Part shown: piece by piece, positions 9,250 through 56,066 of the stretch
Layout of the letters: each line of letters begins with the position of its first letter
Position numbering within the stretch: the first letter of the stretch is position 1
Source: a virus
IMG/VR virus record: IMGVR_UViG_3300032265_000877
Coordinates: 23,611 to 87,610 of that record
Strand: one strand, 5' to 3'
Length of the DNA stretch: 64,000 bases
The notes under the pieces: generated by a model
Database searches by the model: none
What the model saw: only the letters and a program-made list of their open reading frames with translations
Told to the model about the DNA's origin: nothing
Position numbers and translations under genes: made by a program

Positions 9250-11247
9250 TTAGCTTAGAATTCCGCCAGTAGCATTAAGAGTGACGCTTCCAATACCTGT
9301 AGCAGAAGGACTAGCTACAGTTCCTAGTTCGTATAGGGTAGGGATCTCATTAGAAGCGCAAACAATGTCCTTGACTGTAAGCGCTGTTACGGATCCCCCA
9401 GAAGAAACAGAAGATACGTTTGTTGCCACAAGTGCGTACGAGAAAGTGTTACTAGTTACTGCGGTAACAACATAAGTTCCATTAAAGGTAGTATCTACCC
9501 CAGTAACCGACATTGTTTCTCCTACTGTAAGGGTATGGGTAACGGAGGTTGTTAGGGTAGCTACGTTTGAAGTAAGAGCCTTATTAGTAATTGTATAGGT
9601 CTGGTCTTGATCGGCTCGCACCATCTTTAGCACTTGCTGGTATGCAACCCCGTTTACATTACCGATGGCGTAGTGCAGGTCAGAGATGCTGATAGTCTGA
9701 CCAAAGAATACGTTATCAATATAGAACACGTTATTAATAGCTGAGGTAACGTTAGCTATCACAGATGACTGACGGTATTGTGGGGCCACCGTTATGTTAA
9801 CAACAATATACACTCCAACATACTTAGGTGGTTGGAACGTAAGAGTTGTATTAGCGGGAGCTTTATTTGTAAGGTAATTTAAAACATTTGTTGCTGTTGT
9901 GTTAAAAACAGTAGTTGCTGTTGAGTTATCGGCCGCTACTCCCGGGTCACCCGCTGGAGCAATGTACAAAGTAACAGCACTATAAGTATTTGCTGTTGCT
10001 ATTGCTTTTGACACACCCGTAACTTGAACCGCTAAAGCCGCGTAATCGGATAAAGATACAGCCCTGTTAATCGCTCTAATGCTAAGAGGCGCGTTGATTC
10101 TAATAGAGTCAGTTGATTCAGGATCCGCACCGCCGGAAGCGGCACCGTCTCCTTGGGTTACTATGTCTTGGTTAGATACAGAAAGCCCTGAAGGGATAGC
10201 AGATAGTGAAGGTACCTTAATAACATATTTAATGGTATTTGAAGCAACGTTGCCGACTACTCCTCCACCAATACGGTAATTAACGTAGATTGTTGCTCCA
10301 TTTGGCGGAATAATTCCGCTGATGCCGTCGCCAAAAGTTAGATAGGTAATGTTGTTAGCGTTTGTAAACGCTGAAAACACAGGGTCATAGCTACCATAGT
10401 CAACTAAATAATCTACCTGTGTATAAGCAGTTCCATTAATAGTTACTTGAACGCTGTTGCTAATAACTGACTGATTTAGTAGTGCAAAGGTTTGGTTAGC
10501 TGAGCCATTAGAAGTTCCTACAGGCTCATTTGAAATGGTTTCGCCTTGAGTGGCTAGAACAGCCATTGTTCCAGAGAACGTACCAAAAGAAGACCCTGTA
10601 CCTGAAGGGGTAAAGCTTGCGCTTGGGTTGGCTACGGTAAATGTGTAGGCGCCAGAAGATCCGCCTATAGCTGTGACACTAAAGGTTCCGTTAAAGTAAG
10701 AAGGAGTAACTCCAGATACAGTAACCGAGCTCCCTACTTGAACTCCTTGAGTTGTAAGGCTGTATGTGTATGTGGCTACTGTTGTAGAAGACGCTGACGC
10801 TGCAGTTAGTGCGGCCCCAGTTGGAGGAACAATGATTGCTGAGTTAGTCTCAAACACAACCTGAGCTGTGGTTGCGTTAGCTACAAGCGAGGTTGCTGCC
10901 TGAGTAAGTGCTGGAAGAGAAATAGGCGTAGCACTTGAGTTCTGGAAGGTAAGATTTACCGTTGATGCAGTGCTGGTAGTAGGGGTATAACCTAATAGGT
11001 TAGCTAACTGAAGCACGCTTGAACGCTGAGTGGCCGTAGTAATAAACGACTCATTGGCTGCTCGGTCAATGTAGTAATTGAGGATGTCACCCATGTAAGA
11101 GAACAGTTCTACAAGGGTCATACCAAAGTCGGCGGGATCACGGTTAGTCCACTGTGGGGCAAAATTAGGGATAAGCGTGGTCATATCCAACAAAATAGAC
11201 GCGTAGTCTCTTGATGTATAGTTGATTGATGGCACGTAGTTAGCCAC
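9250..11247 (-). CDS. Baseplate wedge protein gpJ-like
   Basis: A 665-residue baseplate J family protein. The N-terminus 'TSRDYASILLDMTTLIPNFAPQW' region, followed by 'DPADFGMTLVELFSYMGDIL' and 'YYIDRAANESFI', is the hallmark of gpJ/T4 gp6. The core includes 'DSIRINAPLSIRAINRAVSLSDY'. Two beta modules of the kind also seen in gpI and gpV are inserted (about 150-220 and 560-630), making it longer than P2 gpJ. It overlaps the gp25 gene by 8 nt. Confidence 0.9.
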   Translation of the reverse strand: MANYVPSINYTSRDYASILLDMTTLIPNFAPQWTNRDPADFGMTLVELFSYMGDILNYYIDRAANESFITTATQRSSVLQLANLLGYTPTTSTASTVNLTFQNSSATPISLPALTQAATSLVANATTAQVVFETNSAIIVPPTGAALTAASASSTTVATYTYSLTTQGVQVGSSVTVSGVTPSYFNGTFSVTAIGGSSGAYTFTVANPSASFTPSGTGSSFGTFSGTMAVLATQGETISNEPVGTSNGSANQTFALLNQSVISNSVQVTINGTAYTQVDYLVDYGSYDPVFSAFTNANNITYLTFGDGISGIIPPNGATIYVNYRIGGGVVGNVASNTIKYVIKVPSLSAIPSGLSVSNQDIVTQGDGAASGGADPESTDSIRINAPLSIRAINRAVSLSDYAALAVQVTGVSKAIATANTYSAVTLYIAPAGDPGVAADNSTATTVFNTTATNVLNYLTNKAPANTTLTFQPPKYVGVYIVVNITVAPQYRQSSVIANVTSAINNVFYIDNVFFGQTISISDLHYAIGNVNGVAYQQVLKMVRADQDQTYTITNKALTSNVATLTTSVTHTLTVGETMSVTGVDTTFNGTYVVTAVTSNTFSYALVATNVSSVSSGGSVTALTVKDIVCASNEIPTLYELGTVASPSATGIGSVTLNATGGILS

Positions 11248-11653
11248 TTGTTACCTCCGTAATTACATCTCCAGACTGGTTAAGGATATCAGTTTTAACC
11301 ACTAGAGTCTCGGCTGTTGCCGATACACCGTACTTATAACTTATAATTACATTTAAATGGCCGTCTTGCTGGTCTACTGATCCGTTTACAGATAGCAGCG
11401 TTAAATAGCTCAACCATCTGGCAAATCCGCTTGCTACTTCTTGGCTGATTAAGGCCATAGCAGCATCCAAATTTTCAAAGCTGGCGGCCCTGGTCTTTGT
11501 TCCAAAACTTGGGCGCATAACCCGTTCGCTTAGTAGAGTCATGATCACTAGGACAATACGATCTTGGATAATCTTCTTCTGGTCATTTGAGTAGGCCACG
11601 GCCCCATTTGCATCAAAGCCAAACGGAAGAGAGATAGCGCTTGGTGTTGTCAT
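11240..11653 (-). CDS. Baseplate wedge protein gp25/gpW-like
   Basis: A 137-residue protein with the gp25-like core: 'IIQDRIVLVIMTLLSERVMRPSFG' (the ERVMRP-FG motif is diagnostic) followed by a helix and beta strands. Gp25 forms the wedge contact that triggers sheath contraction. It lies between gpV and gpJ, the normal P2/Mu order, with 4- and 8-nt overlaps. Confidence 0.88.
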   Translation of the reverse strand: MTTPSAISLPFGFDANGAVAYSNDQKKIIQDRIVLVIMTLLSERVMRPSFGTKTRAASFENLDAAMALISQEVASGFARWLSYLTLLSVNGSVDQQDGHLNVIISYKYGVSATAETLVVKTDILNQSGDVITEVTSG

Positions 11654-12327
11654 AGTTCAACTCCTAACCAGACGGGGTAATTTGGGTCTCCAGCAGTAAA
11701 CATAACCCAGACTTTTTGCCCAATACTAGGGACTAATCTGTGAGGTGTATGCTCTAAAGTGCTGGTTAAATCATTAAATGCAGAACCCGAAGAGGCATTC
11801 CAAAGGTTAGATTGGTTTACTGTTTTTACATGTGGGTGGGCCAATGTGTTACTTGATTGAGGAACTATGGGCTGGTATGACAAGTAGGCTGTGCTGGTTC
11901 CAGCGGCTAAAGACGTGGCGGCATACGGAGTGTTTGGGCAAGTAAATGAATAAGAACTTCCTGCTACCACTGTGGCAATAGCAAAGATGGTGTAAATGCC
12001 TCCGTTTACCGCAACCCCCGCACCAACAACGGCTTTTTGAGTTGTTGATGAGTATGTATAAATAGTTGATGTTCCAGAGGTAGTAACGTTAGTAACAGTC
12101 ACGCCAGCGGGCGTTGCAAGTAGTGCAGCCACTTGAACTGCTGTGTGTGGGATGTGGTCGGGATGGTTAGAGTTAGAGGTTACTGGAAGGCAAGGTTTAG
12201 CCCAGTCAGTTTCAGCCGTCCCTAGAACTTGTGGGACCTGAAGTTTGATCTTGTGCTTATTATCGGGGTCTACATTGTTAGTGCAGACTCCTTCGTATAC
12301 CCCATAAAAGCGCTTGTCTTCGTTCAT
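11650..12327 (-). CDS. Baseplate spike/assembly protein gpV-like (OB fold)
   Basis: A 225-residue protein. The N-terminal 'FYGVYEGVCTNNVDPDNKHK', then 'IKLQVPQVLG', and the C-terminal 'LVPSIGQKVWVMFTAGDPNY', then 'PVWLGV', are the OB-fold strands of gpV/gp5-like central spike proteins. Residues about 75-150 are a beta module ('TYSSTTQKAVVGAGV', 'SYSFTCPNT') inserted in the middle. No lysozyme domain and no HxH iron-tip are visible. Gene order hub-spike-gp25-gpJ-gpI supports the call. Confidence 0.8.
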   Translation of the reverse strand: MNEDKRFYGVYEGVCTNNVDPDNKHKIKLQVPQVLGTAETDWAKPCLPVTSNSNHPDHIPHTAVQVAALLATPAGVTVTNVTTSGTSTIYTYSSTTQKAVVGAGVAVNGGIYTIFAIATVVAGSSYSFTCPNTPYAATSLAAGTSTAYLSYQPIVPQSSNTLAHPHVKTVNQSNLWNASSGSAFNDLTSTLEHTPHRLVPSIGQKVWVMFTAGDPNYPVWLGVEL

Positions 12328-29743: not shown

Positions 29744-29925
29744 TATTCACCTGCCTGTGGGATAGAAGAGTTGGATGGGAGTGTGTCGCCATTGGCTACA
29801 TATGCCAAGTACGCCTGATAGTCAGAATTGGCTGGGTCTGTAGGAATCCACCAAACTGTGCCGTCAAAATCTGTTTTTTTAATAACTTTTTCTTGTGATG
29901 CGTTTGTGACTATTTCATAATTCAT
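29743..29925 (-). CDS. Small fibre-cluster protein (DPANSDYQAYLA motif), copy 2
   Basis: 60 residues with 'WWIPTDPANSDYQAYLAYVA'. It is coupled by overlapping stop/start signals to the fibres on both sides. Paralogue of the 50-residue protein at 28625-28777. Confidence 0.65.
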   Translation of the reverse strand: MNYEIVTNASQEKVIKKTDFDGTVWWIPTDPANSDYQAYLAYVANGDTLPSNSSIPQAGE

Positions 29926-31697
29926 TATAATTCCGCCGATGCTAAGTAGTTTCCGCCTCTAATTCGTCCTGCTTGACCTGCAACTAACGAAGTTGTCGTC
30001 ATTTCAATTTGTACATAATTTGGGTCTATTGTGCTTGTTGCCATCGCCGAACTAGCCGTATCGACACCATTAATTGTATAAGTCCAAGTACCACCAAATG
30101 TAACACTAGGAGAAGTTCTCATTGTTACAGGATGTGCTGGGAAAGCAATTGCAGTTGTTGTGCTTTGCGCTTGAAATAAAATTCCAATAGCGTTACCGCT
30201 TTGTGGCATACGGTACGCATACCTCTGGCAGGCTTGTAACTCCCCCTGAAGTGTGCCAGTAGCAGTTTGGAATGAAGTGGCAACCGAACCTGCTTCAAGT
30301 TGCATACCCCAAATATCCAAGACCGAACCTGATGCACAGGCTTGACGAATAACCGCATAGAGCGATGAGTTAGCGCCAATGGTAAATCCTGAAACCGAGC
30401 CAAGAGTAAATGTAAATGAGTAACGCTGCCAAGAAGTAGTTACATTGAGGGTTGGCGTTGATGAGTATGCCGAGCCTGTACCAGCAGAATTTTGGAAAAG
30501 ATAAACAATGCTAGAACGAGCCGAATCAGCCTTAGCCCAGAAAGAAAGGGTTACGGTTTGACCAGCGAAAGTTCGGACATTCTCAATGCGTTGCTGGATT
30601 TCTGTAACTGTGGTTGAGCCTACGGTTGTAATGGTTGAGCGTAGGAAGTAGGTACTGTTGTAGCCTGAGATTGGCAATTTATCCGATGCTGGAGAAGATG
30701 CGTAGTCAAAGGCCACCTGAGTAACTGATGCTGATGATGGAGCATTATCGTAGGAAATAACAAATCGGTCAGCCGTATATGAGCCAGCGGCAGGGTTGGT
30801 GAAAGAAGTACCGCGTTGCCAAACATCAAAGGCTCCGTTGATAATCTTGTTTTTACCAGCGACATAGTTTCCTGCCCACGATACGCCTGTGCTGGCAGAA
30901 GAGTTTGCAACGAGTGTTGAGCCGTCAGCTCCTACTGCGAGGTTGGTGACGGTTGATGCGCCAGTAGCAGCAATAAGATCGCCCTTGGCGGTTACTGTGC
31001 TAACAGGTATGGCATTAGCAAATGAAAAAGAGCTATGAGAGACGATTGTAGCTACGTCTCCCGCTACCAAGGCTGTTAGACCTGTAATAGAGGTTCCTGT
31101 TGTTGCTGCGTAGTCCACGCCACGCTCTAAAAGGACACCATTAACAAATACCTGTTCTGCGCCAACTGTATAGGTAAGAGTTGTAGAGAAGCCATCTGTT
31201 CCGCTTAAAGTTGTTTCTCCACCAGATGCGGTATAGCGCCACATTAAGAAGACGCCAGCGCCGCTAACTCCTTGGATACCCTGGATACCCTGACCCATTG
31301 TGTACTGGACTACATCTACAGTGTCTCCAGCATTAAGCGCGGTTGCGATAACAACAGATGTGCCATTCGTGGCTGTGTAGTCTGCGCCACTTAAGCGAAC
31401 GCCGTTAAGGTAGACGTCAATGTAGCCAACTGTGTAAGAAGTGGTAAAGGTTGTCTGTCCTGCAGTTGCGGTAAAGGTAGCAACTGTCTTAGCAGCAGTT
31501 GGGTTAAATGGTCCTTGAATACCCTGTAGACCAGTAGGGCCTTGAATACCCTGTAGGCCTTGAACTCCTTGAAATCCTTGCGCACCATTAGCGCCATTTG
31601 AGCCAACAAAGCCAGCAGTACCTTGAGCGCCTTGAGCACCAACAATAGCTGCCACCCATTGACTGGAGCCAGTGTCGTAATACTTAACTTGAGACAT
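29925..31697 (-). CDS. Tail fibre, collagen-like N-terminus and CBM-like tip
   Basis: 590 residues. 'YYDTGSSQWVAAIVGAQG' is the shared fibre attachment head, followed by GxQ/GxY triplets (about 20-65). Two copies of a small domain ('VYLNGVRLSGADYTATNGTS', 'VFVNGVLLERGVDYAATTG') follow. The spike module begins at 'KNKIINGAFDVWQRGTSF'. It ends SAEL like the neighbouring fibre. An adsorption fibre with a sugar-binding tip. Confidence 0.8.
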   Translation of the reverse strand: MSQVKYYDTGSSQWVAAIVGAQGAQGTAGFVGSNGANGAQGFQGVQGLQGIQGPTGLQGIQGPFNPTAAKTVATFTATAGQTTFTTSYTVGYIDVYLNGVRLSGADYTATNGTSVVIATALNAGDTVDVVQYTMGQGIQGIQGVSGAGVFLMWRYTASGGETTLSGTDGFSTTLTYTVGAEQVFVNGVLLERGVDYAATTGTSITGLTALVAGDVATIVSHSSFSFANAIPVSTVTAKGDLIAATGASTVTNLAVGADGSTLVANSSASTGVSWAGNYVAGKNKIINGAFDVWQRGTSFTNPAAGSYTADRFVISYDNAPSSASVTQVAFDYASSPASDKLPISGYNSTYFLRSTITTVGSTTVTEIQQRIENVRTFAGQTVTLSFWAKADSARSSIVYLFQNSAGTGSAYSSTPTLNVTTSWQRYSFTFTLGSVSGFTIGANSSLYAVIRQACASGSVLDIWGMQLEAGSVATSFQTATGTLQGELQACQRYAYRMPQSGNAIGILFQAQSTTTAIAFPAHPVTMRTSPSVTFGGTWTYTINGVDTASSAMATSTIDPNYVQIEMTTTSLVAGQAGRIRGGNYLASAEL

Positions 31698-33025: not shown

Positions 33026-35526
33026 CAGTAAGTAATACTCCCGCTTCCAGTAAAACGATAAACGGTATTTCCGCCGTTGGTATAAACTTGTGGCGAACCT
33101 GTAGTGGACGCAGCCGCAGCATTTGTACTAAGAATCACTACGCCTGAACCAGAAGTACCGTAAGTGCCACCGCCACCGCCACCTGTGTTGGCTACTGCTG
33201 GTGATGCCGTAACACTTGGTGAACTGAAACCACCATAACCGCCACCGTAATCAGTATAAAGGGTGCCAGCATAAGTATAACCACCTGAAGTTCCACCACC
33301 AGCCAATTTCAAACTTGTTCCAGTTAGCGTTTCAATAATTCCAATACCGCCAGTGCCTGTTGGGTTGAAGGATGCTCCAGTGCCAGCGTTACCTACACCG
33401 CCTGCACCGCCGCCTCCCCCTGGACCACCAGTAGAAGCACCACCATCATAACCTTGCCCTGAAGTTCCAGCGCCACCAACGCCAGGTGATGCGCCAGCAC
33501 CACCACCACTTCCACCTGAGCCTCCACTATTTGTACTAAGAGCCCCGTACCCACCACCAACAGTAGTAATGCCATTAAAGGTTGATGGATTTCCTTGAAG
33601 GTTTGCATATGTAGGAGCAACTGTTGTTACTGCGGCTCCAATTGTAACTGTGTAAGTTGTTCCTACTGTGCAAGTTGTTGACCCCTGAAGAACACCACCT
33701 GCTCCACCTGGTGCGTGGGCAGTTGGCGCAGTGTTTGTACTGTATGTTCCACCTGATGCAACAATCACATAAGATACTGTTCTTGTAGGAGTGACTGGAG
33801 TTACTGAGTTAGAAGCAGAAGATGTTGCTGAACCATTGGAGTTAGCAGCAGTTACCGTAAAGGTATAAGCGGTTCCATTTGATAGTCCTGAAACGGTAAT
33901 GGGGCTTGCACCAGTACCAGTAAATGAACCTGGGCTAGATGTCGCTGTGTAAGTATTTGTTAAACCACCAGTATTATTGGCTGTGTAGGCAACAGTTGCA
34001 CTTGCATTTCCAGCAGTAGCAGTACCAATGGTAGGTGCTTGTGGAAGTGTAGTTGCTGTAACCAAATTAGAGAATCCGCTTTCAGCGCCACTTCCCACAT
34101 TGTTAGTTGCATAGACTGTGTACTTATAAGCAGTGTTAGAAGACAAACCAGTAATGGTGATAGGAGAACCAGCACCTGATGAGGCGTTAGATTGATATAC
34201 GCCAGCGCTGTTATACACCTTTACTGTGTATGAGGTAATTGTTGACCCACCATTAGATGCAGGAGCGCTAAATGTTACATCAGCACGACCGTTATTGTAA
34301 GTACGTCCTGAGCCCACATCTGTAGCAGTACCAATAGTAGGTGCACCAGGAACGGTAACTGGAGTTACCGAGTTAGAAGCAGAAGATGCGGAAGAGGTTC
34401 CATAACCATTGGTTGCGGTGACTGTAAATGTATACGCAGTTCCATTAGACAAGCCTGAAACTGTAATTGGACTTGATGTCCCTGTTCCTGTAAATCCTCC
34501 TGGTGAGGATGTCATCGTATAACCAGTAATACTTGAGTTGTTATTGGTGCTACTTCCAGTAAACGTAATAGATGCAGTAGCGTTTCCTGCAGTTGCTGTA
34601 CCAATGGTAGGGGCTGAAGGCACATTGTATACATAAGAACCAGAGGTATTAGAAGCTACCGAAGTTCCATAATTGTTTGTTGCGGTTACAGTGTAGGTGT
34701 ACGTGCCAGCAGTGGTCTCTGTAATAGAAAGAGGGCTTGAACTACCAGAGGCAGAACGTCCAGAAGATGATGTTGCTGTAAAACTTGAGATAGGTGAACC
34801 GCCTGTTGCGTTTGAACTGAACGCTACTGAGGCAATCTTTTCTCCTCCATTAGAGACGCTGCTTAAAGTTGGGGCTTGAGGAACTGTTGCTGGGGTTACC
34901 GCACTTGAAGAGGATGAAGCTGAAGAAGTATTGTTGGCATTAGTGGCAGTTACTGTATAGGTACGAGATGTTCCTGCAGCATCAGAAATTGTAATAGGTG
35001 AAGAAGAGCCAGTTGCAGTATTTCCTGAAGAAGAGGTTACGGTGTAGCTAGTAATTGGTGAACCACCAGTTGCATTTGCAGTGAATGGCACAGAAACGTT
35101 GGCATTTGACCCGTAGGACTGACCTGTAGCAACTGTTGGGGTGCCAATAGTTGGTGCCTGTGGAATTGTGGTAGCAGTAATTGAGTTAGAGGCAGAAGAG
35201 GCAGAAGATGTGCCCTGCGTATCTGTAGCGGTAACTGCAAATGTATAAGATGTAGCGCTCTGTAAACCTGAAACGGTAATGGGGCTAGAAGAAGCTGAGC
35301 CTGTTAACGATCCAGGTGTAGAGGTAGCTGTAAAGCTAGTAGCTTTACCACCAGATGTTGATGGAGTAAATGTAACCGTAGCCGCACCATTGTTGTAGGC
35401 ACGAGATGTGCCTACGTCAGTAGCGGTACCAATGGTAGGCGGCTGTGGAGTGAAGAAGTTATCTCCACTCGAAGCCGTTGTTCCAAAGATGATTGGCATT
35501 AAACGATATCTCCTACTACTTGCCAT
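33025..35526 (-). CDS. Large Fn3 plus glycine-rich tail-fibre adhesin
   Basis: 833 residues with about six fibronectin-III-like repeats ('SSPITVSGLSNGTAYTFTVT' and variants; the linker 'PQAPTIGT' recurs). A Gly/Ser-rich region (about 630-800) with GGGGG runs and variable loops follows. It is a longer sister of the 495-residue adhesin at 23698 and shares its N-terminal 'TIGTATDVGTSRAYNNG'. The 5' end overlaps the collagen-like fibre gene by 28 nt. Confidence 0.75.
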   Translation of the reverse strand: MASSRRYRLMPIIFGTTASSGDNFFTPQPPTIGTATDVGTSRAYNNGAATVTFTPSTSGGKATSFTATSTPGSLTGSASSSPITVSGLQSATSYTFAVTATDTQGTSSASSASNSITATTIPQAPTIGTPTVATGQSYGSNANVSVPFTANATGGSPITSYTVTSSSGNTATGSSSPITISDAAGTSRTYTVTATNANNTSSASSSSSAVTPATVPQAPTLSSVSNGGEKIASVAFSSNATGGSPISSFTATSSSGRSASGSSSPLSITETTAGTYTYTVTATNNYGTSVASNTSGSYVYNVPSAPTIGTATAGNATASITFTGSSTNNNSSITGYTMTSSPGGFTGTGTSSPITVSGLSNGTAYTFTVTATNGYGTSSASSASNSVTPVTVPGAPTIGTATDVGSGRTYNNGRADVTFSAPASNGGSTITSYTVKVYNSAGVYQSNASSGAGSPITITGLSSNTAYKYTVYATNNVGSGAESGFSNLVTATTLPQAPTIGTATAGNASATVAYTANNTGGLTNTYTATSSPGSFTGTGASPITVSGLSNGTAYTFTVTAANSNGSATSSASNSVTPVTPTRTVSYVIVASGGTYSTNTAPTAHAPGGAGGVLQGSTTCTVGTTYTVTIGAAVTTVAPTYANLQGNPSTFNGITTVGGGYGALSTNSGGSGGSGGGAGASPGVGGAGTSGQGYDGGASTGGPGGGGGAGGVGNAGTGASFNPTGTGGIGIIETLTGTSLKLAGGGTSGGYTYAGTLYTDYGGGYGGFSSPSVTASPAVANTGGGGGGTYGTSGSGVVILSTNAAAASTTGSPQVYTNGGNTVYRFTGSGSITY

Positions 35527-38500
35527 ATGTCCGTATCGATTTTGATACAGGTGGCTGATGAGTTCTGCGCTCTTAACTTAGGGGTAGCTGAGGTAGCACC
35601 AGTTGAGTTAATTGTAGTTGTACCTGATGTTACAGCTGCAATTGTAATCTGTCCTACGCCAGTTTGGATAATCGTAATTGAAGATCCAATTGGGTAAGCA
35701 ACTGATGCGTTAGTTGGGATTGAGACCGTAAACGCTGAGCCAGAGCTTGCAGTAATAATTGCCGCAGCATCCGCTAGAACAGTTGTGTAAGCACCAGTTT
35801 TAGGATTGATGTTGTAGGAAATTGAAGGCGCTACAATTACTGAGTTGTAGGTGTTTGGTGATTGTAGGCTTAAACCTGATAGGTTTGTTGTCCACTTAAC
35901 ACCTGTTGTTTGTGTTGAGTCGGCTGTGAGGATAGTGTTATTAGCACCAACTGGGAGAGTAGAAAAGGTTCCTGAGCCAGTTCCCGCAATTGTGTCACCC
36001 TTAGCAGTGAAGTTTGCAGAGGAGAGGCCGACCACGCCAGCTACTGAGGTATCAAGCCATAGTACGCCCTGGTTTGCTGGAGCAGTATTTCCTACAGCAA
36101 GTCCCTGTACACCGATCTGACCCTGTAGACCTTGGAGACCTTGTAGCCCCTGCAGTCCTTGAGTGCCCTGAACACCTTGTAGACCTTGTACACCTTGTGC
36201 ACCAAGACCGAGAGTGATGTTCTGTACGACAACGATATCTCCGGCTACTGCCCCAACCGCTAGAACAACAGATGTTCCGTTAGTTGCTGTGTAGTCTGCT
36301 GAACTTAGGCGGACACCATTGAGGAAGACGTTGATATAACCTGGGTTATATGTAACGCTGAAGGTTGTCTGACCAGAGGTGGCGGTGAACTCAGTAGTTG
36401 TGAATACTGGAGCGTTTGTTACGCCACCCTGTACACCCTGAGTACCCTGTACACCCTGGATAGATTGTCCCTGGAGACCCTGGATACCTTGAGTACCTTG
36501 TGTACCTGTTAGACCCTGGGTACCAGTGGTTCCCTGAACACCCTGAAGACCCTGTAGTCCTTGAGTTCCCTGTGTACCCTGCGTACCGGTTGTGCCTTGA
36601 GCACCTTGTGTTCCCTGCACGCCCTGTAGTCCTTGGGTGCCTTGGGTACCTTGTGTACCCTGAACTCCTTGAGTTCCCTGGGTTCCCTGAACTCCTTGAA
36701 TTCCTTGAGTGCCCTGGATGCCCTGTGTACCTTGTGTACCTTGTGCGCCAGTTGTTCCCTGTACGCCAGATGTAGAGAAGGTCCACTGTGAGAATGTTCC
36801 TGAGCCACCAGTGTTAGTTACATTTACAGTAATGCTTGTGTCTGTAGTGATCGCTGTGATCTGACCAAAGACATAGTTGGCAGGAGTTACTGTGTAGGCA
36901 ACTGTTACAAACTGACCGAGCGCAAATGCGCCAGAGTTTGCTACGGCAAAGGTTAGTGAACCAGTACCAATTGCATTAGAGGTGGTTGAGGTTACGCCAG
37001 TGTAAGAACGTCCCTGAATACCTTGGAGGCCTTGAATACCCTGGATTCCTTGTGTTCCCTGAACACCTTGTACTCCCTGGGTTCCCTGAGTACCTTGGAT
37101 ACCAGTGGTTCCCTGTACGCCCTGCGTACCCTGAGTTCCCTGTGGTCCCTGTACACCCTGTAGGCCTTGAACGCCCTGAGTTCCTTGAACTCCCTGGGTT
37201 CCTTGAGGACCTTGAACTCCTTGGAGTCCCTGTAATCCCTGAGTTCCCTGGGTTCCTTGTGTTCCTTGGAGACCCTGTGTTCCCTGAACACCCTGAGTAC
37301 CCTGGGCACCAGTTGTACCCTGGTTACCAACGGCAGAGGTCTGAGAGAAATTGATGTTATCGATACCAATTTTAATGGTGCCGTTTGTATTAGTGCCAAG
37401 CTGGTATTGAATCCATGAGGTACCGACGTTAGTTGAACCAGCAACTGTGTATACATAGTCGCCAGGCTCTACCTGATCTGCAAGATGGTTGTCATAGTCA
37501 GTTGCGCGAGTAAGTTTCCAGGTAGTAGATGCAGAGCCTGCACTTGTAACTGTATAGATACCGTTTTGTTTAGCATCGGCCTGGTTCTTAACAAGTACGC
37601 GAGTATCTGCTGGTAGTGGTCCAGAGTATGTGTAACCGTCAACTACCAAATAACCGTTAGTTGTTGCTTGAAGGTAAGCGCCTACACCAAGACCGTTAGA
37701 GGCATCTGCTGTTCCTGCAGTGTATGAAGGTGAACCAGCAAGCGCGGTTGTTGTTGTAGTGTAAACAGCTGCGTGTGCGTTCTGTGAACCGGAAGCACCC
37801 TGTAGACCCTGTAGGCCTTGTAGGCCTTGAATTCCTTGAATTCCCTGTGTGCCCTGAACACCTTGGACGCCCTGCGTACCTTGGGTACCATCATGTCCTT
37901 GGATACCTTGAATTCCTTGGGTACCTTGAACACCTTGTGTTCCCTGCGTTCCTTGTGTTCCCTGGATACCAGTTGTACCCTGCACACCTTGTGTTCCTTG
38001 AACACCCTGCGTGCCTTGAGTTCCTTGTAGACCAGTTGTTCCTTGTACACCTTGTGTACCTTGAACTCCCTGTAGTCCTTGAACTCCTTGTGTACCCTGT
38101 GAACCAGTTTGACCAGTGGTTCCTTGGATACCTTGCGTTCCTTGAACGCCTTGGATTCCTTGAGTACCCTGATTACCTTGTACGCCTTGAAGACCTTGTG
38201 TGCCTTGTACTCCTTGAGTACCTTGGACACCTTGTGTGCCCTGCACACCTTGAATGCCCTGAATGCCTTGCGTACCCTGAACACCCTGTGTTCCCTGTGT
38301 ACCTTGAGTTCCTTGTACACCCTGGATGCCTTGTATGCCTTGAATACCTTGAGTGCCTTGTACGCCTTGTAGTCCCTGTGTACCTTGTACACCCTGCGTA
38401 CCCTGCACACCTTGTGTTCCCTGTGTTCCTGTTGTTCCCTGAACGCCCTGCGTTCCTTGGATACCTTGCGTGCCTTGTACACCCTGGGTACCTTGAATAC

Positions 38501-38585
38501 CTGTTGTTCCTTGGGTGCCTTGCGCGCCAACAATGGCCGCGATCCACTGACCGGATCCGGTGTCATAATACTTTAATTGGGACAT
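35499..38585 (-). CDS. Long collagen-like tail fibre
   Basis: 1028 residues. The head 'YYDTGSGQWIAAIVGAQG' equals that of the 590-residue fibre. Three long collagen-like arrays of G-x-Q triplets (GTQ, GVQ, GIQ, GLQ; about 20-260, 410-530, 600-720) are separated by folded domains, and a further short run is near 820. One domain has 'VLVKNQADAKQNGIYTVTSA', another 'VFLNGVRLSSADYTATNGTS'. The C-terminal tip ('APKLR'-like 'TPKLRAQNSSATCIKID') is shared with two downstream fibre genes. The Gln-rich Y position is unusual for collagen and typical of phage triple helices. Confidence 0.85.
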   Translation of the reverse strand: MSQLKYYDTGSGQWIAAIVGAQGTQGTTGIQGTQGVQGTQGIQGTQGVQGTTGTQGTQGVQGTQGVQGTQGLQGVQGTQGIQGIQGIQGVQGTQGTQGTQGVQGTQGIQGIQGVQGTQGVQGTQGVQGTQGLQGVQGNQGTQGIQGVQGTQGIQGTTGQTGSQGTQGVQGLQGVQGTQGVQGTTGLQGTQGTQGVQGTQGVQGTTGIQGTQGTQGTQGVQGTQGIQGIQGHDGTQGTQGVQGVQGTQGIQGIQGLQGLQGLQGASGSQNAHAAVYTTTTTALAGSPSYTAGTADASNGLGVGAYLQATTNGYLVVDGYTYSGPLPADTRVLVKNQADAKQNGIYTVTSAGSASTTWKLTRATDYDNHLADQVEPGDYVYTVAGSTNVGTSWIQYQLGTNTNGTIKIGIDNINFSQTSAVGNQGTTGAQGTQGVQGTQGLQGTQGTQGTQGLQGLQGVQGPQGTQGVQGTQGVQGLQGVQGPQGTQGTQGVQGTTGIQGTQGTQGVQGVQGTQGIQGIQGLQGIQGRSYTGVTSTTSNAIGTGSLTFAVANSGAFALGQFVTVAYTVTPANYVFGQITAITTDTSITVNVTNTGGSGTFSQWTFSTSGVQGTTGAQGTQGTQGIQGTQGIQGVQGTQGTQGVQGTQGTQGTQGLQGVQGTQGAQGTTGTQGTQGTQGLQGLQGVQGTTGTQGLTGTQGTQGIQGLQGQSIQGVQGTQGVQGGVTNAPVFTTTEFTATSGQTTFSVTYNPGYINVFLNGVRLSSADYTATNGTSVVLAVGAVAGDIVVVQNITLGLGAQGVQGLQGVQGTQGLQGLQGLQGLQGQIGVQGLAVGNTAPANQGVLWLDTSVAGVVGLSSANFTAKGDTIAGTGSGTFSTLPVGANNTILTADSTQTTGVKWTTNLSGLSLQSPNTYNSVIVAPSISYNINPKTGAYTTVLADAAAIITASSGSAFTVSIPTNASVAYPIGSSITIIQTGVGQITIAAVTSGTTTINSTGATSATPKLRAQNSSATCIKIDTDIWQVVGDIV

Positions 38586-38658: not shown

Positions 38659-39558
38659 TTATCCCAAGACCACTACTTTGTAGTTGTTTAAGGCTGGTGG
38701 GGAGGCAAAAGTTAGTGTTGCGGTATTCACAGTTGAGTAGACCAAAGATGACGGGATAATTACCGCGTAAGTAGTCTGATTGTAAACAGTGACTTCGATA
38801 TCTCTGGTGCCCAAATTGTGTGTGACTGTATAAGTAGTGTTGGCTCCATCACCAATTAAGAAGGTGAGCTTTTGAGTACCAACAATGCCGCCTACAGATG
38901 TGTCTAGCCATAGAACTCCAGTGTTGGCAGGGGCTGAAGAACCAGAGATAATTCCCTGACTACCTGTTGTTCCTTGAACACCCTGCAACTGTGCGTAACC
39001 AAAACCTTGGACACCCTGCAAACCTTGGGTACCAGTTGTACCTTGTGCACCAACTCCGGTTGCTCCTTGAAAACCAACAAGGCCTTGAATACCCCTAAAT
39101 CCTTGAAGACCTATAAGTCCTTGTAGTCCTTGCGAGCCCGTTGACCCTTGAAAACCAATAAATCCTTGAATACCATTTACACCTTGCAAACCAATAAGGC
39201 CTTGTAAACCTTGAACACCCTGCAACTGTGCGTAGCCAAAGCCTTGAATACCTTGCAAACCTTGGGTACCGAGTCTACCTTGTGCCCCTGTAAATCCTTG
39301 AACACCACTTTGTCCAACTTGACCTTGTAATCCATTAGCGCCCTGTATGCCTTTAGCGCCTTGTAAACCTTGTATGCCTTGAGCGCCAGTGCCCTGTGAC
39401 CCGCCGCTACCAGAGCCTGCTGGTCCTTGAGTACCTTGAACACCTTGTACTCCATAGCCAGGATTTTGTGGCACAACTGTAATAGCAATTGGTGCTTGAG
39501 GCACCACTACAATTGGGCAAGTGCACGGCCAGTTGCCGCAGGTATTACAAGTGTTCAC
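38659..39558 (-). CDS. Collagen-like fibre with Cys-rich N-terminus
   Basis: 299 residues. The N-terminus carries four cysteines (CNTCGNWPCTC), possibly a zinc or disulfide anchor, then a Pro/Val-rich linker and GxQ/GxY collagen-like repeats (about 35-220) in which 'FGYAQLQGVQG' occurs twice. The C-terminal domain reads 'YTVTHNLGTRDIEVTVYNQT', a common fibre-end fold. First fibre gene after the neck protein. Confidence 0.75.
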   Translation of the reverse strand: MNTCNTCGNWPCTCPIVVVPQAPIAITVVPQNPGYGVQGVQGTQGPAGSGSGGSQGTGAQGIQGLQGAKGIQGANGLQGQVGQSGVQGFTGAQGRLGTQGLQGIQGFGYAQLQGVQGLQGLIGLQGVNGIQGFIGFQGSTGSQGLQGLIGLQGFRGIQGLVGFQGATGVGAQGTTGTQGLQGVQGFGYAQLQGVQGTTGSQGIISGSSAPANTGVLWLDTSVGGIVGTQKLTFLIGDGANTTYTVTHNLGTRDIEVTVYNQTTYAVIIPSSLVYSTVNTATLTFASPPALNNYKVVVLG

Positions 39559-50777: not shown

Positions 50778-51211
50778 TTTGATTCCTTTACTACTTCTGC
50801 TGCTGGATCTGTGTTGGCTTTGCGGTATCTAAATGTCTCCCATAAGGGTGCTGGGATTTCATGTATGCCATAGCGAGTTCTATGATGCGCCATGCACAAG
50901 ACCTCTAAGTTGCCTGGGCTTTCAATCCACTCTTGGAACTCTTCATCTGTAACAAAGTGGATACCAAAAGCCTTCTCAACTTTATGTGGGTCCATGTTGT
51001 TTACCTGTGAGAACTCAATATGGCTGTGGTGCAGTTCTGGCCCACCTGAGCAAAGGTCATCGTCTATAGCGCACTTCCATAACCCAGCCTTCTTTATTCT
51101 ATCTTTGGCTTGGTTAAAGAGGTGATAATGGGGGTCGCTCTCACGCGGCTCATGCTCAGGAATAGAAACGGCTAAATGCAGATTCATCATCTGCTTGTGG
51201 GCGTCTGTCAC
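50774..51211 (-). CDS. HNH endonuclease-like protein
   Basis: 145 residues. C47/C54, 'LHHSHIEFS' (H61, H62, H64), N101 in 'PGNLEVLCMAHH' with C106, H109 and H110 are the zinc-supported HNH (beta-beta-alpha metal) pattern. Unusual place: between the two cell-wall hydrolases. It could assist packaging or be a free-standing homing type. Overlaps both neighbours by 4 nt. Confidence 0.7.
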   Translation of the reverse strand: MTDAHKQMMNLHLAVSIPEHEPRESDPHYHLFNQAKDRIKKAGLWKCAIDDDLCSGGPELHHSHIEFSQVNNMDPHKVEKAFGIHFVTDEEFQEWIESPGNLEVLCMAHHRTRYGIHEIPAPLWETFRYRKANTDPAAEVVKESK

Positions 51212-51681
51212 TGGTATATCAGCCTCTCTGCTAGATCCCCTGGGACCACTAGATAGTCTGGTTTGTCTAGTAAAGTGATTCCAGCTTTATCGTAAGCTTC
51301 AGCAACTAGCTCTGAACAGATAAAGCCGTCTTTCTTAGCTAGGTAGGTAAAGAGAGGTAGGTTTAACTTAAGACCTAGGATTCTTAGGGCAAGCACCAAA
51401 ATTGTAAAGAAGTCGTAAGGCTGACCAACAAAAGAAGTTGCAATCTTTGCAATGTTCTCTCTTTGTACATCAGTCAGATCCTCGTGCTTATTCCATGCAA
51501 TGTCTTTGTAGTCAACAACGTTTACAAGTTTTACTCCAGTGGGATCGGCGCTTACAGCTTTGCCATTTCCCACGTAGACTATGGCGTGATTCCAACGACT
51601 GGTAGTGCCTACACGGATTAGCAAACCAAAGAACCCGTTAGTCTTTACTACTCCGTAGTCGCCTAAACGAGGTTCGTACAT
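51208..51681 (-). CDS. Permuted papain-like (NlpC/P60-type) hydrolase
   Basis: 157 residues. H32 in 'SRWNHAIVYVG' comes before C122 in 'GFICSELVAEAYDKAG'. The order His then Cys is that of the permuted papain-like amidases (YiiX/LRAT-like). 'GDYGVVKTNGFFGLLIR' is the opening strand. It may cut peptidoglycan or lipid/peptide amides. A hydrophobic stretch (about 90-112) may associate with membranes. It forms a second wall-active candidate beside the CHAP endolysin. Confidence 0.75.
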   Translation of the reverse strand: MYEPRLGDYGVVKTNGFFGLLIRVGTTSRWNHAIVYVGNGKAVSADPTGVKLVNVVDYKDIAWNKHEDLTDVQRENIAKIATSFVGQPYDFFTILVLALRILGLKLNLPLFTYLAKKDGFICSELVAEAYDKAGITLLDKPDYLVVPGDLAERLIYQ

Positions 51682-52205: not shown

Positions 52206-52721
52206 ATGCTTAATATCAGAATCAACTTTACAGTTGATGTAAAAAAGGTAATGAGAGTGGTTGGAGCACTTGTACTAGCGTCTACACAGATGTTTACGCC
52301 TGCACATGCTTTACCCGCTCAAACCTCTAAAGAGAAAGTTGTGACAGTTTCTCTTCAGTACATTACTGTGAATACGACACGGACAGGTGCCAAGAAAGCC
52401 TTGGCTAGTGCTTATGTTAAGTACTTTGACGCTCAGACGATTGCCTTCTTAACGGAGTACTCGGCTGGCAAGTCCATGACTGAATGGAAGTGTTTAAACT
52501 CACTTTGGTCTCATGAAAGCCACTTTAACCCTAAAGCTCTTAATATGAGCTCGCACGCCTTTGGTATTGCTCAGTTTCTCCCATCAACGTGGGGGAACTA
52601 CAAGGTACAAAAGACTGCTATGGCGCAACTACAAATTAAATACGGGCTACATTACATCCAAAAAAGATACGGAGACGCATGCAATGCTTGGAAGTTCTGG
52701 CAGGAGCACGGTTGGTATTAA
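52206..52721 (+). CDS. Exported lysozyme-like (SLT) protein
   Basis: 171 residues. Signal peptide: basic start, hydrophobic 'VVGALVLASTQMF', and an AHA cleavage site near residue 35. The catalytic domain has E104 in 'LWSHESHFNP', then 'SHAFGIAQFLPSTWGNY' and 'YIQKRYGDACNAWKFWQEHG', the lytic transglycosylase-type fold of actinobacterial Rpf/SLT proteins. Being exported and in an operon with WhiB, it may act on the host wall early rather than at lysis. The 3' end overlaps whiB by 38 nt. Confidence 0.85.
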   Translation: MLNIRINFTVDVKKVMRVVGALVLASTQMFTPAHALPAQTSKEKVVTVSLQYITVNTTRTGAKKALASAYVKYFDAQTIAFLTEYSAGKSMTEWKCLNSLWSHESHFNPKALNMSSHAFGIAQFLPSTWGNYKVQKTAMAQLQIKYGLHYIQKRYGDACNAWKFWQEHGWY

Positions 52722-52962
52722 AGCACCAGGGTTTGATGGGACACAGATCTGCGCTCAAACAGACCCAAACTTGTTCTTTCCAGACGAATTTAAAGACTCG
52801 CGTCTAGCCTTAAACACGGCCCGCAAACTATGCAGGTCGTGTGAATTCAAGCGTCCCTGCTTAGAGTATGCAATAAATAATCCAGAATTAGTCGGTGTCT
52901 GGGCAGGGACTACTGTAAGTCAAAGGCAAGATATAAGGACGGCTAGAAATAAAGCCGCATAA
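52684..52962 (+). CDS. whiB: WhiB-family iron-sulfur transcription factor
   Basis: 92 residues from the ATG at 52684, chosen because GGAG lies about 10 nt upstream and the WhiB domain starts soon after. Cysteines are C23, C50, C53 and C59 ('DGTQICAQTDPNLFFP', 'CRSCEFKRPCLEYA'), and 'GVWAGTT' is the G[VI]WGG-like turn. WhiB proteins bind a 4Fe-4S cluster and the sigma A subunit, and are actinobacterial and actinophage-specific. Likely reprograms host transcription. Overlaps the lysozyme gene in another frame. Confidence 0.92.
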   Translation: MLGSSGRSTVGIKAPGFDGTQICAQTDPNLFFPDEFKDSRLALNTARKLCRSCEFKRPCLEYAINNPELVGVWAGTTVSQRQDIRTARNKAA

Positions 52963-52966
52963 CAAG

Positions 52967-52995
52967 AAAGCCCCCGATCGCTCGGGGGCTTTTTG
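52967..52995 (+). terminator. Bidirectional intrinsic terminator after whiB
   Basis: AAAGCCCCCGA (52967-52977), TCGC loop, TCGGGGGCTTT (52982-52992), then TTGC. 11-bp stem with a T-tract on both sides, ending the rightward operon and also the leftward gene at 53007. Confidence 0.9.
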
Positions 52996-53006
52996 CTGTG
53001 TAACTA

Positions 53007-54068
53007 TTATGCAGCGTATGGTGTGAGTGTAACGGCTGTTCCTGCTGAAACTGAAGCAGTATTTGCAGCAACAGATTGTGTCTTAATTGTTCCTGCGCGA
53101 GCAGCAACCTTGACGGTACCGGTATCTGCGCCTGATCCAATGTTTCCATGTGTAAGGGCGTAGGTAAGGGTTGTTCCTGAAGATGTAAGCAACGTAAATG
53201 TTCCATTGACAGCTGTATTGGTGACAGCAGCAACTGTAGCTGAGTCTCCAGCGGCATAACCGTGGGCTGCAGCTGTTGTAATAGTAACAACATTGCTTGT
53301 AAGTGCTACGTTAGAAATAGCTGGAGTTACAGCAGATGCTGTTGTAGGTACAAGCTCAACATCATTCATAGCGTCTGTAGCAGAGGCTGTTGAAAGACCA
53401 ACAACGTTAGGAACTACTACATAAGCAACGCCTGAAACGTAAGCGCCATCATTTGCAGTAACTTCGTCTGTGTAACGAGCTGTACCTGAGATGTTGATAT
53501 AGCTGCCAGTTCCTGAAGCAGTAACTGTAAATGTGTACTGATTGGCTGATGCAACTGTAAGGTTAGTTCCATCAAGACCTGTGCCAGCAATGTTTACTGT
53601 GTCGCCAGCTTTAAGGAGGTTATTTGGGGCTGTGTAAGTCTGTGTAGTACCGTCACCAGAAGCCTGTGTAATGCGGTATACAGCCTGATGTGTGCTTGCA
53701 AATCGAGGGTAAGAAGCCCAACCAGCCTCTGCACGAACATGGTTATCCATGTTTACTGTGCGAGTAGGGTTGTTTCCTACAGTGACTGCTACATCGCCGT
53801 AAGCAAGATTGGTGCTAGCTACCTGAGTAGTGGCTGACCACTGAACATCGTAAGTTGAGCCACCTGTGTTTGAGATTGATGCACGACGCTCATCATTTGG
53901 CTGTAGAGGATTAACTCCACCCCATACGTAATCTACTGCTAGATTACCTGCTGAGTCTGTAGCGTGACCGGCGTTATTTGTTACGCCCGCCTGAGCTGCA
54001 ATAGCTACGGCATATGCTCCTGTAGCCTTTGGATCGCCTAGTGGGGCGGTTCCTGAATAACTTGACAT
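53007..54068 (-). CDS. Virion surface protein with split PASTA domain
   Basis: 353 residues. The N-terminal half (1-210) is beta-rich ('YDVQWSATTQVASTNLAYGD', 'VNMDNHVRAEAGW'). At about 219-247 is the first half of a PASTA domain ('VPNVVGLSTASATDAM') and at about 322-353 its second half ('VSAGTAVTLTPYA'). Between them lies the same beta module that occurs in baseplate proteins ('SNVVTITTAAAHGYAAGDS', 'VNGTFTLL'). PASTA domains bind peptidoglycan or muropeptides, so wall recognition is likely. The type of virion structure is unknown. Confidence 0.65.
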   Translation of the reverse strand: MSSYSGTAPLGDPKATGAYAVAIAAQAGVTNNAGHATDSAGNLAVDYVWGGVNPLQPNDERRASISNTGGSTYDVQWSATTQVASTNLAYGDVAVTVGNNPTRTVNMDNHVRAEAGWASYPRFASTHQAVYRITQASGDGTTQTYTAPNNLLKAGDTVNIAGTGLDGTNLTVASANQYTFTVTASGTGSYINISGTARYTDEVTANDGAYVSGVAYVVVPNVVGLSTASATDAMNDVELVPTTASAVTPAISNVALTSNVVTITTAAAHGYAAGDSATVAAVTNTAVNGTFTLLTSSGTTLTYALTHGNIGSGADTGTVKVAARAGTIKTQSVAANTASVSAGTAVTLTPYAA

Positions 54069-54396: not shown

Positions 54397-55251
54397 TTAG
54401 TAATAAATGTAAAGAACTCCGTTACCGCCATTACCGCCGACGTAACCTCCGCCACCAGCACCGCCGCCACCGCCACCATTGCCGCCTGCGCCCCCGCCGT
54501 AAGCTCCAACATAGTTTCCACCCGCAGAGATATAACCAGCACCACCGCCTGCGCCAACGTTTGCAGAACCACCAGAGCCGCCTAAACCAGAACCTCCTGC
54601 GCCCGCTAAACCAGATCCGGAGCTAGCGCCACCTCCGCCGCCAATAATTCCGTTTCCGCCAGCCAGTCCACCGTTTCCGCCACTGCCAGTTCCGCCACCA
54701 CCGCCAGAAATACCATTTGCTCCAACATTTCCAGCAGCACCTCCCGCGCCACCTGTACCAGAGGCAGAAGAATAGTAATAAGAAGTGCTGTAGCTAGTTA
54801 ACATAGGCACAGCAAGTCCGCTTACACCACCGTGACCGGGCGCAGCATACGCGTTGTTGGTGCTATAACCTTGACCCCCGCCGCCAGCGTTGTAGCCCCC
54901 GTTTAGACCAGAGCTATTACCGCCTCCACCGCCACCGCCTCCCGCTAATAAAATTCCATAGCTAGTTGTTCCACCAGTTCCACCAGGAACTTGCGAACCT
55001 CCGCCACCGCCTGAACCAATTACACAAGAAGATGCTGCAGGAGTCCAACCTTGTGTTAAACCTCCGGCTCCTCCACCGCCGCCGCCTTGAGAGCTGCTGG
55101 AACCGCCACCTCCGCCACCACCAACAAGAATGCAGTAAACCCAAGGAGTACCTGAAGGAATAGATACGGAACCTGATGAAGTGATTGTTTGACGAAGGGT
55201 TAAGCCGTAAGGCGCCCCAGAAGTAGACAATGAACTGTAACTAATAGTCAT
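54397..55251 (-). CDS. Glycine-rich fibre tip protein
   Basis: 284 residues from the ATG at 55249-55251, which overlaps the preceding stop (TAATG). An in-frame ATG five codons upstream is less likely. An N-terminal 45 residues ('APYGLTLRQTITSSGSVSIP', 'WVYCILVGGGGGGG') are followed by a polyglycine region with many GGGGG runs and aromatic or Ser/Tyr loops. Similar to the glycine-rich tips at 23698 and 33025 but without Fn3 repeats. Third candidate receptor-binding tip. Confidence 0.7.
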   Translation of the reverse strand: MTISYSSLSTSGAPYGLTLRQTITSSGSVSIPSGTPWVYCILVGGGGGGGSSSSQGGGGGGAGGLTQGWTPAASSCVIGSGGGGGSQVPGGTGGTTSYGILLAGGGGGGGGNSSGLNGGYNAGGGGQGYSTNNAYAAPGHGGVSGLAVPMLTSYSTSYYYSSASGTGGAGGAAGNVGANGISGGGGGTGSGGNGGLAGGNGIIGGGGGASSGSGLAGAGGSGLGGSGGSANVGAGGGAGYISAGGNYVGAYGGGAGGNGGGGGGAGGGGYVGGNGGNGVLYIYY

Positions 55252-56066
55252 TATGAGACTCTCCATCCGTAGGCAGAACCTACATATACTAAGTTAACTG
55301 CAGCGTAGTTTTTATCGATAAGTAGTGATGTTGCTTGACCATTTATGTTTAATCCGTTATTTGCAATTGTAATGTTATTTGTTGCAGAGTTACCCGTTGA
55401 GTCAAATATGTGGATCTCACTTCCAATAGACGCTGAAGAGGGTAACGTTAGTGTAATAGCACTCGAGGTAGTGGTTACGCAGTAAGAGTTAAACGGAGCG
55501 ATAGAAGTGTTAGAAGAGATTGAGGTTGCGGGGAACTGACCAGACGCTCCAGAACCTCCTTGAATACCTGTAAGTCCTTGAGGACCCTGCACACCTTGTA
55601 TACCTAGGTTTCCTTGGATACCTTGAGGGCCTTGAATACCTTGTGTTCCAGATCCGCCAGAAGATCCTTGAAGACTTGTTATAGGTGACCAAGAAAGCGT
55701 TGAGCCATTGCTTGTTAAAAGAGTGTTGGAGCTACCGATACCTAAACGAGTTACTGTAGCTGCGCCTGTACCAACAATTAAGTCGCCTGCGGTAGTGACC
55801 ACTGAATTCTTAAGATATTGAGGGTGAGCATCAGCAACGATACCCTTTTCAATGTTAGCTAATCGAGCTGCAACAGTGCCGTAATCAGTTGCAGTATTGG
55901 CCCAGCCAGAGGCTGTGGCAGCTGTTGCAAGAGATGGGGTTGTTCCAATAGCACTTTCGATAGCTATAACTTCATTTTGGATGGCATTTGGGTGACCAGC
56001 ATCAATGATCTCAGTAACATTTACGTGGGTAGTAAACGTCGCTACCTGACTTGGATATGAAGCCAT
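55251..56066 (-). CDS. Short tail fibre with collagen-like stalk
   Basis: 271 residues. Head 'ATFTTHVNVTEIIDAGHPNA' with 'IQNEVIAIESAIG' and 'DAHPQYLK' is a common phage fibre N-terminal domain. 'AGDLIVGTGAATVTRLGIGS' is a linker. A short collagen-like run (about 140-175) follows, then a beta domain ending 'VYVGSAYGW'. Coupled to the glycine-rich tip gene downstream, suggesting shaft plus tip. Confidence 0.75.
   Translation of the reverse strand: MASYPSQVATFTTHVNVTEIIDAGHPNAIQNEVIAIESAIGTTPSLATAATASGWANTATDYGTVAARLANIEKGIVADAHPQYLKNSVVTTAGDLIVGTGAATVTRLGIGSSNTLLTSNGSTLSWSPITSLQGSSGGSGTQGIQGPQGIQGNLGIQGVQGPQGLTGIQGGSGASGQFPATSISSNTSIAPFNSYCVTTTSSAITLTLPSSASIGSEIHIFDSTGNSATNNITIANNGLNINGQATSLLIDKNYAAVNLVYVGSAYGWRVS

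What the first reader, a model, noticed from the sequence alone, without database searches (positions are those of the whole stretch)
53007..54068. Beta module inserted inside a PASTA domain
The 353-residue protein has the first PASTA half ('VPNVVGLSTASATDAM') and the last half ('VSAGTAVTLTPYA') separated by about 70 residues that match a module found in baseplate proteins. PASTA domains are peptidoglycan-binding. A clean split by a foreign beta module suggests recent domain insertion at a permissive loop.
Basis: partly seen in the sequence, partly recalled or inferred. Interest (0 to 1): 0.65.

Follow-up and report, generated by a model that had tools for sequence, protein, structure and literature searches.

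The report
Swappable module inside phage PASTA domain
In a group of uncultured phages that probably infect actinobacteria, a small cell-wall-type domain (PASTA) has a second small domain plugged into one of its loops; the plug is old, but related phages keep exchanging it for very different versions, which suggests an exposed surface part under pressure to vary.

Summary
The minus-strand ORF 53007-54068 encodes a 353-residue protein whose PASTA domain is split by about 72 foreign residues (250-323). Deleting them restores a full PASTA match (Pfam 24.7 to 36.9 bits; all 109 split relatives improve). A confident model (pLDDT 96) shows a PASTA helix-and-strand frame with a beta module in the beta2-beta3 loop. 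The module resembles the E1-ubiquitin FCCH / endosialidase beta-barrel fold and also occurs in this phage's baseplate proteins. Relatives without the insert exist: among 132 proteins sharing the N-terminal domain, 23 have a normal 7-9 residue loop, 109 have 78-95 residues, and none lies between. "Recent insertion" is wrong for the site: the tree fits one old insertion that founded a large clade. What is recent is the content: about 15 insert types are exchanged slot-to-slot between backbones (94% identical backbones with 23% identical inserts, and 55% with 99%). Most likely this is a virion-associated adhesin or decoration protein of an actinophage, with PASTA as scaffold and the insert as exchangeable tip. 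The architecture and exchange are shown; the function is inferred.

The parts
53007..54068 (-). Whole gene, 353 aa (P0001): N-terminal domain, module 1, split PASTA with nested module 2
53679..54068 (-). N-terminal domain (residues 1-130) with the family signature VDxVWGNxPLQPNDxR; no match in Pfam, PHROGs or NCBIfam
53460..53678 (-). Module 1 (about residues 131-203), extra beta module before PASTA; absent from the short (about 215 aa) relatives; weak hit to End_beta_barrel PF12195 (24.6 bits, cut-off 35)
53322..53420 (-). PASTA N-terminal half (residues 217-249: beta1, helix, beta2)
53100..53321 (-). Nested module 2 (residues 250-323), FCCH-like beta module in the beta2-beta3 loop; exchangeable slot
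53013..53099 (-). PASTA C-terminal half (residues 324-352: beta3, beta4)
52967..52992 (-). Terminator-like hairpin just after the gene (11 pairs); 2 terminator-like sites found in the region where shuffles give 0.8

Best explanation
Shown: the protein is an N-terminal family domain followed by a PASTA domain whose beta2-beta3 loop carries a nested FCCH/endosialidase-barrel-like beta module. The slot was filled, most simply once and long ago, at the base of a large clade; its content has since been replaced repeatedly by recombination between relatives, confined to the slot and leaving both PASTA halves in place. Inferred: the protein is a virion-associated accessory adhesin or decoration protein of contractile-tailed phages of Actinobacteria. 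PASTA serves as a cell-wall-type scaffold that holds the exchangeable module out as a variable tip contacting the cell envelope; selection for variety at that tip keeps swapped modules.
For: Split and restored PASTA. Model of residues 214-353 with pLDDT 96.2 and pTM 0.84: helix 14-23, strands 27-30, 114-118 and 132-138 frame a module with strands at 37-108. 90 of 96 members hit Pfam PASTA, 7 hit E1_FCCH, 3 End_beta_barrel. Foldseek: E1 enzymes UBA1/UBA6 first (prob 1.00, E from 0.026, TMq 0.39-0.45), phage endosialidases next; best viral hits include PASTA-domain and Baseplate J proteins of uncultured phages (E 2.5e-8, 1.2e-6). 23 intact against 109 split with none between; 2 changes on the backbone tree; one clade not rejected, p-AU 0.69. 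Exchange: 15 types, 42 changes where 14 is the minimum and 78 the shuffled mean; L234/L253 backbone 94%, insert 23%; L048/L090 backbone 55%, insert 99%; DNA boundaries fall at the PASTA halves. Control: the two PASTA halves agree with each other (rho 0.42) better than either does with the insert between them (0.19, 0.17). All 32 loci inspected with the T5 insert have it in the same slot. Context: collagen-like and glycine-rich tail-type genes upstream, endolysin, terminase and portal downstream; WhiB, and TerL nearest to Streptomyces phage BRock.
Against: No proteomic, binding or imaging evidence of a place in the virion or of any ligand. The N-terminal domain has no known relative, so virion attachment is unproven. 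One PASTA domain alone need not bind peptidoglycan. The backbone tree rests on 111 columns with many weak forks, so the 42 changes may be an overestimate. A few paralogues (such as L196_4739, L220_4449) carry a different, unalignable insert at the same place, so a second insertion is possible.
Confidence: 0.68

Rival explanations
1. The split PASTA is a neutral relic: a structural beta module common in these phages landed in a tolerant loop and drifts, with replacements by ordinary phage mosaicism and no selection for variety. The insert has no ligand.
For: The same kind of module occurs in baseplate and tail proteins, where it may be a spacer. Third-position identity is ordinary throughout (0.42-0.47), so no special exchange device is visible.
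Against: Exchange is confined to the slot: backbones 85% or more alike in both regions have inserts under 40% in 16 of 73 pairs, whereas the flanking PASTA halves track each other. The filled slot is kept in 108 related proteins, and no deletion back to a bare loop is seen well inside the main clade.
Confidence: 0.2
2. The protein is a lysis or host-takeover factor (cell-wall-targeted), not a virion part: PASTA directs it to the septum or wall from within the infected cell.
For: The gene lies near CHAP endolysin, SLT transglycosylase and NlpC/P60-like genes. PASTA is known from cell-wall kinases and penicillin-binding proteins (established knowledge; weak profile hits to PonA2 and PknB PASTA chains).
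Against: No catalytic domain; the N-terminus MSSYSGTAPLGDPKATG shows no hydrophobic stretch resembling a signal peptide by eye. The module also occurs in this phage's baseplate and tail proteins.
Confidence: 0.17
3. The insert exchange is an artefact of metagenome assembly, which joins strains at shared sequence.
For: All relatives come from assembled metagenome contigs; none is in cultured phage records.
Against: The same insert types recur across many independent metagenomes. Flanks at the junctions share no long identical DNA that an assembler could bridge in the checked pairs. Both sides of the slot belong to the same backbone.
Confidence: 0.05
4. The arrangement is one continuous non-PASTA fold, and the PASTA similarity is chance.
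For: The C-terminal half alone is a weak match, and the split hit passes the Pfam cut-off by only 1.5 bits.
Against: Contiguous PASTA in 23 relatives, restoration by deletion in 109 of 109, confident model.
Confidence: 0.01

Closest known systems
PASTA domain (Pfam PF03793) of penicillin-binding proteins and PknB-type kinases
   Same: Sequence profile in both halves, VPNVVG start, helix-and-strand topology in the model, contiguous in 23 relatives
   Different: Here a single PASTA, in a phage protein, interrupted in the beta2-beta3 loop by a whole folded module; no kinase or transpeptidase partner
E1 FCCH domain (PF16190) and endosialidase beta-barrel (PF12195)
   Same: Best fold matches of the nested region; 7 and 3 of 96 members reach E 0.01 with these models
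   Different: The window's own insert does not reach either Pfam model; no link to ubiquitin activation or sialidase activity; used here as a nested insert
Phage domain mosaicism (PMC10684548)
   Same: Shuffling of domains in phage proteins that contact the host, recent swaps
   Different: That paper does not mention PASTA; here the exchanged unit is nested inside another domain, in a fixed slot with both flanks retained
Ig-like domains scattered over phage structural proteins (from memory: Fraser and colleagues 2006)
   Same: A small beta module spread over several virion proteins as a surface ornament
   Different: Different fold; inserted within a domain rather than appended; slot-to-slot replacement
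PASTA domain-containing proteins A0A6J5KPZ4 and A0A6J5KPY1, uncultured Caudovirales phage
   Same: Fold hits of the model (E 2.5e-8, 3.5e-5), so relatives already sit in UniProt under this label
   Different: Annotated by PASTA alone; nested module and exchange not described in anything found here

Membership tests
PASTA domain (PF03793) | Profile score over the curated cut-off | tested here: met
   24.7 bits split, 36.9 bits joined, cut-off 23.2; 90 of 96 relatives match at E 0.01
PASTA domain (PF03793) | One helix packed on three strands, in the order strand-helix-strand-strand-strand seen in PASTA | tested here: met
   Model: short strand 3-4, H14-23, E27-30, E114-118, E132-138 outside the insert, pLDDT 96; coordinates could not be superposed on a solved PASTA
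PASTA domain (PF03793) | Contiguous domain of about 60-65 residues | tested here: not met
   Interrupted by about 72 residues in P0001; contiguous in 23 relatives
PASTA domain (PF03793) | Binds muropeptide, peptidoglycan or beta-lactam | not testable with these tools
   Needs a binding assay; not universal among PASTA domains (established knowledge)
E1 FCCH domain (PF16190) | Profile match over the curated cut-off (29.5 bits) | tested here: not met
   No hit for P0001's insert alone; 7 of 96 relatives at E 0.01, best 7e-6
E1 FCCH domain (PF16190) | FCCH-type beta-barrel fold | tested here: inconclusive
   Top PDB hits are UBA1/UBA6, prob 1.00 but E 0.026 and TMq about 0.4
Phage receptor-binding or decoration protein | Present in the virion | not testable with these tools
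   Only gene context: tail-fibre-type genes upstream, endolysin, terminase and portal downstream
Phage receptor-binding or decoration protein | Conserved attachment part and rapidly exchanged tip | tested here: met
   Median pairwise identity N-domain 64%, PASTA 58%, insert 29%; discordant pairs

The most novel reading that the evidence does not exclude
The PASTA domain works as a natural display socket: phages hold a fixed scaffold gene and exchange only the plug nested in one loop, drawing on a shared pool of about 15 module types across many related phages, to change envelope contacts without touching the attachment part. This is a display-and-swap layout loosely analogous to antibody loops but made by recombination between phages.
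Probability: 0.4. Interest if true: 0.72.

Novelty: new variant of a known kind. Interest (0 to 1): 0.57.

Why it matters
Domain mosaicism in phages is usually seen as domains joined end to end. Here a module nested inside a known domain is replaced over and over at one site while both halves of the host domain stay put. That gives a natural data set of insertion tolerance, with intact and filled forms of one scaffold and about 15 plug types. It marks a concrete loop in PASTA as a permissive site, and it makes a testable prediction that plug type governs what the phage touches on actinobacterial cells.

Tried and rejected
Full-length structure prediction from 16 rows was poor (pLDDT 45) and was not used beyond the module. 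Search for relatives in cultured phages found none for P0001, the insert-less L084 or L177; none in GTDB genomes. Looked for DNA anchors or a device at the slot junctions: synonymous sites are no more conserved there than elsewhere (0.42-0.47), so no diversity-generating element is claimed. Single-linkage clustering at 55% merged 83 of 109 inserts and was replaced by average linkage. Tested whether the insert type moves between different proteins: all 32 loci inspected with type T5 have it in the same slot of the same family, so transposition between genes is not supported for recent events. Literature searches for PASTA in phage structural proteins or E1_FCCH in phages gave nothing relevant. 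A sigma-70-like promoter scan gave no more than shuffles.

Full report
WHAT IS THERE. The ORF of the finding runs on the minus strand, 54068 to 53007; the window is part of an 87.6-kb virus record. Its 353 residues divide into an N-terminal domain (1-130), a first beta module (about 131-203), and a PASTA domain whose two halves (217-249 and 324-352) are parted by a second beta module (250-323). Pfam finds PASTA in two stretches (24.7 bits); joining the halves gives one hit over almost the whole model (36.9 bits). In a scan of 711 trial deletions with a profile built from intact PASTA domains, the optimum removes residues 252-323 (13.5 to 42.5 bits). All 109 split relatives gain on removal of their insert (median 13.5 to 30.2), while removing the same length elsewhere does nothing (12.7). 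So the split is not a chance resemblance.

STRUCTURE. The full-length model was poor, but residues 214-353 with 96 aligned sequences gave pLDDT 96.2 and pTM 0.84. Helix 14-23 and strands 27-30, 114-118 and 132-138 form the PASTA frame, and strands between 37 and 108 form the nested module, in the loop between PASTA strands 2 and 3. Foldseek against PDB puts E1 enzymes (UBA1, UBA6; the FCCH region, judged by the Pfam hits) first and phage endosialidases next, with probability near 1 but E-values of 0.03-0.3, so the relationship is suggestive. Pfam E1_FCCH matches 7 of 96 relatives and End_beta_barrel 3, and E1_FCCH matches a module in this phage's own tail protein below its cut-off (23.7 against 29.5 bits).

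INTACT RELATIVES AND THE AGE OF THE INSERT. Scans of IMG/VR with several queries gave a family defined by the motif VDFVWGNxPxQPND. In 132 aligned members the loop length is bimodal: 23 have 7-9 residues (plain PASTA, for example L213:3965-4405, L177:4001-4543, L210), 109 have 78-95, none lies between. On a tree of 111 backbone columns with the insert left out, the two states need only two changes (shuffled mean 22). In a second tree 108 split rows form one side of a branch (support 93), and a single clade of all split rows is not rejected (p-AU 0.69). Intact L210 and L213 attach near the base of the split clade. The simplest history is one old insertion. A handful of divergent neighbouring paralogues hold an unrelated-looking insert at the same place and may represent a second insertion.

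THE CONTENT OF THE SLOT IS EXCHANGED. Inserts fall into about 15 types at a 45-unit average-linkage cut, and type changes 42 times on the backbone tree (minimum 14, shuffled 78). Pairs make the point without a tree: L234/L253 have backbones 94% identical and inserts 23%; L053/L102 93% and 26%; L048/L090 the reverse, 55% and 99%; L033/L082 57% and 94%. At DNA level L039/L042 are about 100% identical across the insert and about 56% on its near flanks. For the window's own protein, the relatives closest in the N-domain (L032, L031, L033; 84-86%) have inserts of only 20-24% identity, whereas L029 and L039 share 99% and 92% of the insert. As a control, the two PASTA halves on either side of the slot track each other (rho 0.42) better than either tracks the insert (0.19, 0.17), so the replaced piece is the slot, not the whole 3' end. 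All 32 loci inspected with the T5 insert hold it in this slot, so recent exchange is slot to slot. No DNA anchor was seen at the junctions.

CONTEXT AND HOST. Upstream on the same strand lie collagen-like and glycine-rich tail-type genes; beyond two convergent genes (an SLT transglycosylase and a WhiB protein) come NlpC/P60-like and CHAP lysis genes, terminase and portal. WhiB is typical of Actinobacteria (established knowledge), and the terminase is 52-53% identical to Streptomyces phages such as BRock. A position near lysis and terminase genes is seen in L213, L087, L031 and L036 too.

HOW IT MOST LIKELY WORKS. Shown: nested architecture, old site, exchanged content. Inferred: the protein is on the virion, and the PASTA frame presents the plug to the actinobacterial envelope, with diversity kept by selection. 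The nearest alternative readings are a drifting structural spacer and an intracellular wall-targeted factor; neither is excluded.

COMPARISON. It is a PASTA domain by profile and by predicted topology, failing only the feature of being contiguous. The insert resembles the E1 FCCH and endosialidase modules but does not meet either profile in the window's own copy. Domain shuffling in phage proteins is known (PMC10684548, which does not mention PASTA); a fixed, nested exchange slot inside PASTA was not found in the literature searched.

LIMITS. Everything rests on assembled metagenome contigs; recurrence of types across many independent metagenomes and the lack of identical DNA at the junctions argue against chimeras, but long reads were not available. 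The backbone tree is short. Function is untested.

Noticed in passing
11650-12327 (-): The baseplate spike protein's Phage_base_V (OB) domain is also hit in two stretches (50.4 bits), with a Ser/Thr-rich beta stretch between them: a possible second nested insertion in the same phage.
   Followed up: no
9250-11247 (-): Baseplate J-like protein carries two copies of the module (about residues 146-212 and 552-623).
   Followed up: partly
53460-53678 (-): Module 1, before PASTA, is absent from short relatives, doubled in some (L072, L094, 432 aa), and near-identical at DNA level between some diverged relatives (L039/L042), so it may be exchanged too.
   Followed up: partly
L208, L195, L196, L220, L235, L238, L247: Tandem paralogues of the family side by side; one copy has intact PASTA, another a degenerate PASTA with an unalignable insert at the same place, others (L208:3229, L238:3189, L247:2129) have the N-terminal domain with an unrelated C-terminus.
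   Followed up: partly
52561-52962 (+): WhiB-family transcription factor carried by the phage, convergent with the PASTA gene and beside a transglycosylase; a similar pair is seen in L031 and L036.
   Followed up: partly
51208-51681 (-): PHROG label 'enoyl-CoA hydratase-like' (phrog_1128) against Pfam Peptidase_C92 / NlpC-P60: the PHROG name looks wrong.
   Followed up: no
35499-38585 (-): 1028-residue protein made largely of collagen-like GTQGVQ-type repeats, with further collagen-like proteins at 29925-31697, 38659-39558 and 55251-56066.
   Followed up: no
54397-55266 (-): Glycine-rich protein with long poly-Gly runs, upstream of the PASTA gene; resembles the glycine-rich sandwich of tail adhesins (from memory).
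   Followed up: no
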